A stretch of DNA of 64,000 nt from Rubrivivax gelatinosus (GTDB taxonomy: Bacteria > Pseudomonadota > Gammaproteobacteria > Burkholderiales > Burkholderiaceae_C), in assembly GCF_004340905.1 (NCBI RefSeq), contig NZ_SLXD01000007.1:186001-250000 (forward strand), read 5' to 3'. Positions 12,551 through 15,035 of the stretch are shown here, piece after piece. The position numbers and the translations under genes were made by a program. The notes beneath the pieces were generated by a model that saw only the letters and a list, made by a program, of their open reading frames with translations, was not told the origin of the DNA and ran no database searches. How positions within the stretch are numbered: the first letter of the stretch is position 1; each line of letters begins with the position of its first letter.

Positions 12551-13762
12551 ATGTCCCACCCCCTCGACCCCTCCGCCGGCCTGCAGACCCTCGCCATCCA
12601 CGCTGGCGAGACCCCCGACCCCGCCACCGGCGCCTCGGCGCCGAACATCGTCATGTCGACGACCTTCGTCACCGGCGCCGACGCCGGTTTCTCGGTCGAG
12701 GACATGGACGACGAGACACGCTGGATCTACACGCGCTGGGGCAACCCGACGGTGCACCAGCTCGAGACCAAGCTGGCCGCGCTCGAAGGCGCCGAGGCCG
12801 CGGTCGCCTTCGGCAGCGGCATGGCGGCGGTCAGCAGCCTGTTCATGCACCTGCTGAAGGCCGGCGACCATGCCGTCGTCAGCGACGTCACCTACGCCGC
12901 GGCTTCCGAGATGGCGCGCGAGATCCTGCCGTCTCTGGGCATCGAGATCACGCGAGTCGACACCTCCGACCTCGCCCAGGTCGCCGCGGCGATGCGGCCG
13001 AACACGCGCCTGGTCTACGCCGAGACGCCCTGCAACCCGCTGCTGCGGCTGACCGACATTGCCGCGGTCGCCGAGATCGCGCACGCCGGCGGCGCGCTGC
13101 TGGCGGTCGACTCGACCTTCGCGACGCCGCTGGCGACGCGGCCGCTGGCGCTGGGCGCCGACTTCGTCGTGCATTCGCTGACCAAGTACCTCGGCGGCCA
13201 CGGCGATGCGCTCGGCGGCGCGGTGCTCGGTGGCGCCCAGGCGCTGGCCTCGCTGCGCCAGCGCACGGCGATCCGCTTCGGCGGCGTGCTGAGCCCGTTC
13301 AACGCATGGCTGATCCTGCGCGGGCTGGCGACCTTCCCGCTGCGCATGCGCGCCCACGCCGAGAACGCCCTGGCGCTGGCGAAGTACCTCGAAGCGCATC
13401 CGCGCGTCGAGCGCGTCTTCTACCCCGGCCTGCCGTCGCATCCGCAGTACGAGTTGGCGCAGCGCCAGATGCGCAACGCGTCCGGCATGGTCACCTTCCG
13501 CGTCGCCGACGGCGCCGCGCTGGCGCGGCGCTGCGCCGAGCAACTGCGCGTCATCCACTACGCGGTGTCGCTGGGCCACCACCGCTCGCTGCTGTTCTAT
13601 CTCGCCAGCGAGGATCTGCTGCGCACCTCGTTTCGCCTCGACACGCCGGCGCAGCGCGCGTCCTGGGACGCCTACGCCGGCGACGGCATCTTCCGCTTCT
13701 CGGTCGGCCTCGAGGACCCCGAGGACCTGATCGCCGACCTGGCGCGGGTGCTCGACACCTGA
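12551..13762 (+). CDS. Cys/Met metabolism PLP-dependent enzyme (cystathionine gamma-synthase / methionine gamma-lyase family)
   Basis: A 403-residue fold-type I PLP enzyme. Family signatures are IYTRWGNPTVHQLE, the FGSGMAA phosphate-binding loop, AETPCNPLLRL, and Lys212 in HSLTKYLGGHGD, the Schiff-base lysine. Members perform gamma-replacement or gamma-elimination on cystathionine, O-acyl-homoserine or methionine; the sequence alone does not decide between synthase and lyase. The gene is monocistronic, preceded by the repeat region and convergent with the small stefin-like gene 16 bases after its stop. Confidence 0.9.
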   Translation: MSHPLDPSAGLQTLAIHAGETPDPATGASAPNIVMSTTFVTGADAGFSVEDMDDETRWIYTRWGNPTVHQLETKLAALEGAEAAVAFGSGMAAVSSLFMHLLKAGDHAVVSDVTYAAASEMAREILPSLGIEITRVDTSDLAQVAAAMRPNTRLVYAETPCNPLLRLTDIAAVAEIAHAGGALLAVDSTFATPLATRPLALGADFVVHSLTKYLGGHGDALGGAVLGGAQALASLRQRTAIRFGGVLSPFNAWLILRGLATFPLRMRAHAENALALAKYLEAHPRVERVFYPGLPSHPQYELAQRQMRNASGMVTFRVADGAALARRCAEQLRVIHYAVSLGHHRSLLFYLASEDLLRTSFRLDTPAQRASWDAYAGDGIFRFSVGLEDPEDLIADLARVLDT

Positions 13763-13778: not shown

Positions 13779-14060
13779 TCAGGCGTCTAGCGGCAGGATC
13801 GAGACGATGTGCGGCGCACGATGGCCGAGTGGCTGATAGATGTACACCTTGGCCGCGAAGTCGGTGGCGTCCGGATAGACCGCCCGTGCCTTGCAGAGGA
13901 AGCAGTAGTTCATGCCGGCGACGACCTGGTGCGCCGCGGCGAGCGGCGTGTAGCTGACACTGAGCAGGCCTTCCATCGCGGTCTTGAGCACCTGGCGGTC
14001 TTCCTCGGTCAGTTCGAAGCAGAACGGCGACCAGCCACCGGGCATCGTCGTATGGGTCAT
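13779..14060 (-). CDS. small stefin (cystatin)-like protein, putative cysteine protease inhibitor
   Basis: A 93-residue protein without a signal peptide. It shows the three inhibitory elements of animal stefins in the right order: an N-terminal PGG (residues about 7-9), a single helix (EEDRQVLKTAMEGLL), then a strand pair joined by QVVAG (HQVVAGMNYCFLCKARA) and a later strand KVYIYQPLG matching the stefin KVFKSLP region. In cystatins these wedge into the active site of papain-like proteases. A CxxC pair (CFLC) is unusual. ATG 14060 has a GGTGGAG site 6 bases upstream; GTG or ATG starts at 14072 and 14066 are worse placed. The assignment rests on motif comparison from memory; inhibitory activity is inference. 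Confidence 0.65.
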   Translation of the reverse strand: MTHTTMPGGWSPFCFELTEEDRQVLKTAMEGLLSVSYTPLAAAHQVVAGMNYCFLCKARAVYPDATDFAAKVYIYQPLGHRAPHIVSILPLDA

Positions 14061-14245
14061 GACCATCTCCACCGGCCGCGACGTTGTCGCCCACGTTCGG
14101 CAGGCGGCGGCCGGCGTCGCTGCCGTGGCTGGCGGTCACCCGACCGGGCCCGCCTTCGCTCCCCAACGTAGCCCGTCCGGCCGGGCATTCAAGCGCCGCG
14201 AGGGGTGATGGTTTTGCATCCAGCCACGGCCCGGCGGCGACTCGC

Positions 14246-14251
14246 TACGAT
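14246..14251 (+). promoter_or_regulatory. -10-like hexamer for xth (leaderless type)
   Basis: TACGAT ends 7 bases before the xth ATG with no Shine-Dalgarno sequence between, as at aroQ, thyA and queG. Confidence 0.45.
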
Positions 14252-14258
14252 CGCCCGC

Positions 14259-15035
14259 ATGAAGATCGCCACGTTCAACGTCAACGGCATCACGGCGCGC
14301 CTGCCGCGGCTGCTCGAATGGCTGGCCGAGTCGGCGCCCGACGTCGCCTGCCTGCAGGAACTGAAGACCTCCGACGAGACCTTTCCGGTGCAGGCCATCC
14401 AAGCCGCCGGCTACGGCGCGATCTGGCACGGGCAGAAGGGCTTCAACGGTGTCGCCGTGCTCGCGCGCGGCGCGCAGCCGGTCGAACGCCGCCGCGGCCT
14501 GCCCGGCGACCCCGACGACAGCCACAGCCGCTACCTCGAAGCCCAGGTCGGCGAGGTGATCGTCGGCGCGCTCTACCTGCCCAACGGCAACCCGCAGCCG
14601 GGCCCGAAGTTCGACTACAAGCTGAAGTGGATGCAGCGCCTGCACGAGCACGCCGCGACGCTGGTGAACCTGGGCGCGCCGGTGGTGCTGGCCGGCGATT
14701 ACAACGTCGTGCCGACCGACGCGGTTCGCGACATCTATTCGCCCAAGGGCTGGCAGAACGACGCGCTGCTGCAGCCCGAGTCGCGCGAGGCCTTCGCGCG
14801 CCTGCAGGCGCTGGGTTTCACCGACGCCCTGGCCACGCTGCATGGCGACGCGGCGATGTACACCTACTGGGACTACTTCCGCCAGCGCTGGGAGCGCAAC
14901 GCCGGGCTGCGCATCGACCACCTGCTGCTCAACGCGCCGGCCGCGGCGCGGCTGAAGGCCGCCGAGGTCGACCGCTTCATCCGCGGGCGCGAAAAACCCA
15001 GCGACCACGCGCCGGTCTGGGTCGAACTCGGCTGA
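14259..15035 (+). CDS. xth: exodeoxyribonuclease III (AP endonuclease, xth family)
   Basis: A 258-residue Mg-dependent nuclease of the ExoIII/APE1 fold, acting in base excision repair on abasic sites and on 3' ends of duplex DNA. Conserved elements are MKIATFNVNGI, LQELKT (metal Glu), GDYNVVPTD (Asp/Asn), YWDYF, and RIDHLL with GREKPSDHAPV near the end (Asp-His pair). The ATG at 14259 opens directly with the conserved strand, so no longer start is needed. It converges with folA; the two stop codons are adjacent. Confidence 0.96.
   Translation: MKIATFNVNGITARLPRLLEWLAESAPDVACLQELKTSDETFPVQAIQAAGYGAIWHGQKGFNGVAVLARGAQPVERRRGLPGDPDDSHSRYLEAQVGEVIVGALYLPNGNPQPGPKFDYKLKWMQRLHEHAATLVNLGAPVVLAGDYNVVPTDAVRDIYSPKGWQNDALLQPESREAFARLQALGFTDALATLHGDAAMYTYWDYFRQRWERNAGLRIDHLLLNAPAAARLKAAEVDRFIRGREKPSDHAPVWVELG

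What the first reader, a model, noticed from the sequence alone, without database searches (positions are those of the whole stretch)
13779..14060. Bacterial stefin-like (type 1 cystatin) protein
The 93-residue product has the stefin layout: N-terminal PGG, one helix, then the exact cystatin inhibitory loop QVVAG inside HQVVAGMNYCF and a downstream strand (KVYIYQPLG) matching the stefin KVFKSLP region. No signal peptide, as in animal stefins. A CxxC pair (CFLC) is added next to the loop. Seen: motifs and order. Known: QVVAG plus the N-terminal Gly and second loop block papain-like proteases. Inferred: it inhibits a cysteine protease, its own or a predator's or host's.
Basis: partly seen in the sequence, partly recalled or inferred. 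Interest (0 to 1): 0.78.

Follow-up and report, generated by a model that had tools for sequence, protein, structure and literature searches.

The report
Bacterial stefin-type cysteine protease inhibitor
A small gene in a Rubrivivax bacterium encodes a structural relative of the animal protein stefin, which plugs the active site of papain-like protein-cutting enzymes; such bacterial stefins have been known since 2009, but this copy is patchy and fast-changing, and no papain-family enzyme was found in its own genome for it to block.

Summary
Window 13779-14060, minus strand, encodes a 93-aa leaderless protein with PGG (7-9), QVVAG (45-49) and KVYIYQPLG (71-79). Alone it matches no Pfam or NCBIfam model. 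A profile of it and six relatives hits only cystatin-type chains in the PDB (24 of 24, best 9e-8). The AlphaFold model (pLDDT 93.6) is helix plus sheet; all 50 listed Foldseek rows are cystatin-fold entries, though none reaches E 0.001. Across 91 domains Gly8 is invariant and Pro77 kept in 84; QxVxG is invariant too, but most rows were selected on it. The CxxC is no addition: Cys56 is in 66 of 91 rows.

Kordis and Turk described bacterial stefins in 2009, so this is a new member of a known kind. New here: the gene sits at one locus in 3 of 81 Rubrivivax genomes, is missing beside xthA in a close relative, and is 43-61% identical between species whose flanking xthA and PLP genes are 93-98%. No papain-family peptidase was found in its genome, and one in 1 of 22 carriers tested. 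The target is probably external. Inhibition is untested.

The parts
13779..14060 (-). Stefin-like (type 1 cystatin) gene, 93 aa, no signal peptide
   Evidence: ORF; family alignments; PDB profile hits to cystatins; AF2 model pLDDT 93.6, pTM 0.83; Foldseek
14034..14042 (-). N-terminal trunk P7-G8-G9 (codons); G8 invariant in 91 of 91 family rows, G9 in 81
13974..14006 (-). Predicted helix, residues 19-29
13914..13928 (-). First inhibitory hairpin QVVAG, residues 45-49, between strands 35-47 and 49-60
13893..13904 (-). CFLC, residues 53-56; Cys56 common in the family (66 of 91), Cys53 variable (15 of 91)
13812..13832 (-). Second hairpin loop PLGHRAP, residues 77-83, between strands 67-77 and 84-91; P77 in 84 of 91 rows
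14061..14079 (-). Region upstream of the start with GGTGGAG 6 nt before the ATG (possible ribosome site)
   Evidence: sequence printed
12551..13762 (+). Flank: PLP-dependent (cystathionine/methionine-type) enzyme gene (name recalled from sequence), 95-97% identical in two other Rubrivivax genomes
14205..15035 (+). Flank: exonuclease III-like gene (xthA; name recalled from sequence), 93-98% identical in the same two genomes

Best explanation
It is a bacterial stefin (type 1 cystatin-like, MEROPS I25 fold) of a Rubrivivax species. It most likely works as animal stefins do: a reversible, tight-binding plug in which the N-terminal trunk around Gly8, the QVVAG hairpin and the proline-containing second hairpin together form a wedge that fills the active-site cleft of a papain-family (C1A) cysteine peptidase without being cut. 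The target is most likely not one of the cell's own enzymes but one met from outside, such as a lysosomal or digestive cathepsin of a bacterivorous protist or animal host. The protein, being leaderless, would be exposed when cells are damaged or lysed, or by an unknown export route. Shown: gene, predicted fold, family, conserved contact elements, no PF00112 match in the genome. Inferred: inhibition, tightness, external target, way of exposure.
For: PDB profile search with A1 returns 24 sequences at E up to 10, all cystatin-type by name (that adhiron derives from a plant cystatin is recalled): 6i1m Fasciola type 1 cystatin 9.1e-8, potato multicystatin 2.9e-5, human stefin A about 1e-3. A1 is the query plus six domains found without the QxVxG motif as a criterion. 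AF2 model mean pLDDT 93.6, order helix, strand, strand, strand, strand. All 50 listed Foldseek rows (of 440) are cystatin-fold entries, TM-score to stefin B (1stf_I, papain complex) 0.70. G8 91 of 91, P77 84 of 91, QxVxG 91 of 91, the last biased by selection. The same domain is fused in one open frame to a chagasin (I42) domain, an unrelated papain-family inhibitor, in Saezia sanguinis (E 3.5e-10) and a Fusobacteriaceae MAG (3e-9), both above the Pfam cut-off. No PF00112 match in the own genome, and 1 of the 22 carrier genomes tested against 33 of 200 Burkholderiales in general. Mechanism of stefins from the review PMC7863939 (passages seen).
Against: P0001 itself gives no Pfam hit and no PDB cystatin hit. 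No Foldseek match passes E 0.001, and rmsds are mostly 3-6 A (range 2.6-19). No inhibition data exist here. A leaderless protein has no shown route to an outside enzyme. Other papain-fold or cysteine-peptidase families of the own genome (C1B, C13, C39, C58 and so on) were not searched. The chagasin fusions are in distant members, not this one, and in those two the stefin part matches no PF00031. Some plant cystatins were recruited against other proteases (SQAPI, aspartic), and 21 of 91 domains match the SQAPI model weakly, best 4.8e-4.
Confidence: 0.72

Rival explanations
1. It regulates or neutralises a cysteine peptidase acting inside the bacterial cell: either an endogenous one of a family other than C1A, or a papain-like effector toxin delivered by a competitor, in which case it is an orphan immunity protein.
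For: No signal peptide here, and 69 of 88 related frames were called leaderless by a crude hydropathy rule. The gene comes and goes at one locus and evolves fast, as immunity genes do. A Clostridia member carries a weak, below cut-off IseA DL-endopeptidase-inhibitor match behind its stefin domain (0.00081).
Against: No PF00112 in the genome. No papain-type active-site motif in frames of 120 aa or more in any locus held at that point (a regex only). No PADLOC match for the four proteins tried. In the three Rubrivivax loci the shared neighbours I compared are housekeeping-type genes; I did not examine neighbours further out for toxins.
Confidence: 0.2
2. It has the cystatin fold but has lost or changed inhibition and serves as a binding scaffold for something else.
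For: Elevated dN/dS, 0.59-0.79 between Rubrivivax species. The cystatin superfamily is known for such recruitment in vertebrates and plants (PMC2784779, passages seen).
Against: The three contact elements are just what is kept: G8 91 of 91, QxVxG 91 of 91 (selection-biased in most rows, but 7 of 7 in A1), P77 84 of 91.
Confidence: 0.06
3. A spurious open frame or chance motif resemblance, not a gene.
For: An overlapping 120-aa frame exists on the plus strand, and the single sequence matches no curated model.
Against: Homologues in the same frame over nearly the full length in two Rubrivivax genomes at the same place and across several phyla; a high-confidence fold.
Confidence: 0.01

Closest known systems
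Bacterial stefins of Kordis and Turk 2009 (PMC2784779)
   Same: Stefins scattered over Beta-, Gamma- and Deltaproteobacteria, Bacteroidetes, Chlorobi, Cyanobacteria, Clostridia, Spirochaetes, Fusobacteria and Actinobacteria; patchy within genera; a chagasin-stefin fusion reported for Bacteroides fragilis (passages seen).
   Different: Rubrivivax does not occur in that paper's main text. Locus-level presence and absence and the excess divergence over neighbours were not in the passages seen. The two fusions found here are in other lineages.
Animal and protist stefins (type 1 cystatins: human stefin A/B, Fasciola 6i1m, Dictyostelium cystatin A2 8gqq)
   Same: N-terminal Gly, QxVxG hairpin, Pro-containing second loop, helix plus sheet, no signal peptide.
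   Different: Fewer residues between helix and hairpin than in 6i1m and stefin A in the profile alignments; GGW and NY(x)F motifs typical of the bacterial set; 17-25% identity to the stefin structures listed by Foldseek; inhibition untested.
Chagasin / ICP (Inhibitor I42, PF09394)
   Same: Another inhibitor family of papain-like peptidases found in bacteria; fused to this stefin domain in two distant members.
   Different: Unrelated fold (recalled); no PF09394 match in this genome.

Membership tests
Cystatin superfamily (fold) | One helix wrapped by an antiparallel sheet | tested here: met
   AF2 H19-29, E35-47, E49-60, E67-77, E84-91, pLDDT 93.6; all 50 listed Foldseek rows (of 440) cystatin-fold, probability 0.69-1.00, best E 2.4e-3. 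The short first strand is barely formed in the model (single residues 10 and 14).
Cystatin superfamily (sequence) | Significant profile similarity to known cystatins | tested here: met
   A1 profile vs PDB 9.1e-8 and 2.9e-5; A3 profile 3.3e-10, but its members were selected for QxVxG
Pfam PF00031 Cystatin | Score over the gathering cut-off | tested here: not met
   P0001 no hit at E up to 10; 2 of 7 A1 domains, best 0.037; 33 of 91 A2 domains match weakly, best 0.0045; a three-domain relative, L089, passes (23.6 vs 22.2 bits). In my view this tells more about the model than about the kinship.
Stefins (type 1, I25A) | N-terminal Gly before the helix | tested here: met
   G8 in 91 of 91 rows
Stefins (type 1, I25A) | QxVxG hairpin | tested here: met
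   7 of 7 rows of A1, six of them not selected on it
Stefins (type 1, I25A) | Second hairpin with Pro and without the Pro-Trp of type 2 cystatins | tested here: met
   PLGHRAP, P77 in 84 of 91; the type 1/type 2 distinction is recalled
Stefins (type 1, I25A) | About 100 aa, no signal peptide | tested here: met
   93 aa, no hydrophobic leader before the domain, by eye; about a fifth of relatives look exported
Stefins (type 1, I25A) | No disulfide bonds | tested here: inconclusive
   Three Cys (14, 53, 56); pairing cannot be seen from these tools
Stefins (type 1, I25A) | Grouping with eukaryotic stefins rather than type 2 cystatins in a tree | not tested
   The tree made here holds bacterial (plus viral-contig and plasmid) rows only
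Stefins (type 1, I25A) | Inhibits papain-family peptidases | not testable with these tools
   needs an assay

The most novel reading that the evidence does not exclude
In Rubrivivax this is an anti-predator or anti-host weapon under an arms race: a cytoplasmic stefin stockpiled in the cell that, when a grazing protist or host phagosome breaks cells open, blocks the grazer's digestive cathepsins and so protects clonemates. This would explain its sporadic presence, the lack of a detectable C1A peptidase at home and its much faster protein change than its neighbours.
Probability: 0.25. Interest if true: 0.65.

Novelty: new member of a known kind. Interest (0 to 1): 0.36.

Why it matters
Bacterial stefins were recognised in silico in 2009, and the searches made here (held library only, listings plus passages of three papers) turned up no report of an inhibition assay of one. 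This member is a clean test case: a cultivable photosynthetic genus not known as a pathogen (general knowledge), a single gene at a fixed locus, natural carriers and a natural non-carrier, and no papain-family peptidase detected at home. It would let one ask directly whether bacteria use animal-type protease inhibitors against outside enzymes.

Tried and rejected
Single-sequence searches led nowhere: Pfam, NCBIfam, PDB phmmer (only triosephosphate isomerase and a methylglyoxal reductase at E 0.4-0.73), genome contigs and viral contigs with the single protein, 60 relatives of the genome at E 0.001, phage records, PADLOC, PHROGs with the A1 domains (one member, E 0.28). An added CxxC metal or redox site was rejected as a special feature.

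Positive selection was considered: dN/dS for the stefin is 0.79 (window vs G459; bootstrap 5-95% 0.48-1.39), 0.59 (vs G460; 0.35-0.93) and 0.76 (G459 vs G460; 0.48-1.17), so it is faster than the neighbours tested but not shown to exceed 1. A histidine-kinase neighbour is also rather fast (0.34-0.59), an ntrC-type neighbour is slow (0.11-0.14), so relaxed constraint is possible. The stefin dS is raised as well (0.37-0.92, against 0.14-0.21 in PLP, xthA and thyA, 0.20-0.28 in ntrC and 0.32-0.45 in the kinase), which may mean allele replacement by recombination. Not settled.

The bacterial tree is too poorly resolved (91 columns, 39 of 89 inner branches open, bootstrap not settled) to claim transfer events. 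The window row lies in no supported group, and the three Rubrivivax rows do not group together: G459 pairs with a Prevotella row (90/79) and R. gelatinosus IM 151 stands alone. That is against plain vertical descent at the locus, or noise. Of the places at E up to 1, only those at 3.4e-18 and 3.4e-13 were taken as relatives besides the own gene; the rest were dropped as chance-level. One search found two further weak matches: G040 (1.2e-6), read, shows GGY and RTQVVAGTNY behind a lipoprotein-like leader (by eye); G262 (3.5e-4) was not followed up. From (88 loci) L044, L108 and L109 were dropped from A2 as near-copies, L003 as a copy of L079, and further repeats of the domain in multi-domain proteins of those loci were not used.

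Full report
What is there. The frame at 13779-14060 is read on the minus strand and encodes 93 residues. The plus strand has a stop inside. The gene's GC is 0.642 with GC3 0.851, somewhat below the four neighbours measured (0.67-0.75; GC3 0.93-0.97).

Family. Alone the protein matches nothing in Pfam or NCBIfam, and phmmer against the PDB finds no cystatin. The whole protein finds relatives in 2 of 399 Burkholderiales genomes besides its own at significant E-values (G135 3.4e-18, G094 3.4e-13) and in 3 plasmid records (Persicobacter 1e-16, Aureibacter 5e-14, Bradyrhizobium 3e-8). The Aureibacter frame holds two such domains in tandem. In the alignment of these seven domains G8, G9, W10, T18, V35, Y37, Q45, V47, G49, N51 and P77 are invariant. 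Two of the seven match PF00031 on their own, best 0.037. The profile of the seven against all PDB chains gives 24 sequences at E up to 10, all cystatin-type by name: 6i1m 9.1e-8, multicystatin 2.9e-5, stefin A 0.0008-0.0015. The wider scan used a pattern over QxVxG and found 365 relatives among 448 candidate stretches in genome contigs, of which the best 80 were kept, and 8 among 38 in viral contigs. They lie in Betaproteobacteria, Gammaproteobacteria, Geobacteraceae, Bacteroidota, Chlorobiota, Cyanobacteriota, Clostridia, a Treponema MAG and a Fusobacteriaceae MAG. In the 91-row alignment G8 is 91 of 91, G9 81, Y37 91, P77 84; QxVxG is 91 of 91, which for most rows follows from the selection. 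Pfam PF00031 is matched weakly by 33 of 91 single domains, best 0.0045. One three-domain lipoprotein-like relative passes its cut-off (L089, 23.6 vs 22.2 bits).

Fold. AlphaFold2 with a 57-row alignment gives mean pLDDT 93.6 and pTM 0.83, helix 19-29 and strands 35-47, 49-60, 67-77, 84-91. QVVAG is the hairpin between the first two long strands, and PLGHRAP the hairpin between the last two. Foldseek against the PDB has 440 matches at E up to 10 and none at 0.001 or better. The best are the Fasciola type 1 cystatin (2.4e-3), sialostatin L2 and Dictyostelium cystatin A2. The TM-score to stefin B of the papain complex (1stf_I) is 0.70, the highest (query-normalised) of the 50 listed rows. All 50 are entries of cystatin-fold proteins or of complexes that hold one; for a few complexes the identity of the chain is taken from the title.

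Place in the genome. The A2 profile finds the stefin in 3 of 81 genomes of the genus, the own one included. In these three it lies in the same place and orientation between the PLP-enzyme gene and xthA, followed by the DHFR-like and thyA-like genes. In G459 there is room and open frames for two more genes between the PLP gene and the stefin. In G447, whose xthA is 94% and thyA 96% identical to the window's, the 1.5 kb beyond the xthA start shows no stefin match and runs directly into the gene that precedes the stefin in G459 (the identity of that gene is read by eye from the sequences), and the A2 profile finds no stefin elsewhere in G447. So the gene has come or gone at this spot. The other genomes of the genus code are more distant: xthA 39-43% in the remaining 11 of the 14 searched.

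Rate. By codon comparison the stefin is 61%, 43% and 46% identical between the three Rubrivivax genomes, dN 0.29-0.54, dS 0.37-0.92; PLP, xthA and thyA are 92-98% identical, dN 0.01-0.05, dS 0.14-0.21. A large histidine-kinase neighbour is intermediate (70-83%, dN/dS 0.34-0.59), an ntrC-type one slow (0.11-0.14). The stefin ratios are 0.59-0.79, and the bootstrap ranges include or approach 1 without exceeding it reliably. Fast change is shown; its cause is not. In the tree the three Rubrivivax rows do not group together, but the tree is weak.

Target. PF00112 (Peptidase_C1) has no match in the own genome, while the control genomes ring in 3 of 14. Of 23 genomes searched together, 22 carry the stefin and G447 does not; the 22 are five held under G handles and 17 of the 88 loci, chosen mainly as Betaproteobacteria. 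In 200 Burkholderiales genomes 33 have one, so the carriers tested are not enriched for a papain-family peptidase. A regex for the papain active site found nothing in frames of 120 aa or more in the loci held at that time; this is a weak test. In Saezia sanguinis and in a Fusobacteriaceae MAG the stefin domain is in one open frame with a chagasin I42 domain (3.5e-10 and 3e-9, over the cut-off). The same combination was reported for Bacteroides fragilis (PMC2784779, passage seen). Two unrelated inhibitors of the same peptidase class in one protein argue that the stefin domain of this family inhibits such peptidases. No I42 match was found in the own genome.

Mechanism. [quoted passage not shown] All three elements are here and are among the most conserved positions. 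The working picture is therefore a reversible competitive plug against a C1A peptidase. Because no such enzyme was found at home, an outside enzyme is the likelier target, as Kordis and Turk proposed for bacterial stefins in general (PMC2784779, passages seen). The weak point is exposure: the protein has no leader. By a crude hydropathy rule 69 of 88 related frames are leaderless and 19 carry a signal- or lipoprotein-like start; two of the 19 (L046, L063) look like artefacts of a too early start, and three of the 69 (L095, L102, L107) look exported by eye. So the family seems to work on both sides of the membrane, depending on the lineage.

Novelty. Bacterial stefins, their patchiness and a chagasin fusion were published in 2009. 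In the held library the searches ('bacterial cystatin' with 'stefin', 'bacterial stefin', 'stefin' with 'chagasin', 'cystatin-like' with 'Bacteroides', 'prokaryotic cystatin' and similar) turned up no report of an inhibition assay of a bacterial stefin; I saw the listings and passages of three papers (PMC2784779, PMC3594739, PMC7863939), and subscription papers are mostly not held, so this is no proof of absence. The gene is a new member of a known kind. What is added is a genus with carriers, a non-carrier and fast divergence at one locus.

Noticed in passing
L057:5710-6264 (Saezia sanguinis) and L069:5629-6246 (Fusobacteriaceae MAG): Chagasin (I42) domain fused to a C-terminal stefin domain in one open frame; two unrelated papain-family inhibitors in one protein. 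A like fusion is on record for Bacteroides fragilis (PMC2784779).
   Followed up: partly
L067:1010-1882 (Oscillospiraceae MAG): Lipoprotein-like stefin followed by a weak, below cut-off match to the IseA DL-endopeptidase inhibitor (0.00081).
   Followed up: no
L089:5692-6789, L102:785-1597, L022:4986-5549, L032, L038, L053, L055, L062, L086, L093: Multi-stefins: two or three stefin domains in tandem in one frame, some with a lipoprotein-like start (by eye).
   Followed up: partly
L107:870-5222 (viral-contig collection): A 1451-residue stretch of one long frame with cadherin-like, copper amine oxidase N-terminal and weak Ig-like domains ends in a stefin domain; the middle part has a Cys...His...Asp/Asn order that may be a papain-fold peptidase (by eye only).
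   Followed up: no
L148 (G447), beyond the xthA start: Close relative without the stefin at the same locus; a natural empty site.
   Followed up: partly
L163 (G040) 1387-1818 minus: A more divergent GGY...RTQVVAGTNY protein with a lipoprotein-like leader (by eye) in another Burkholderiales genome, perhaps a type of its own.
   Followed up: partly
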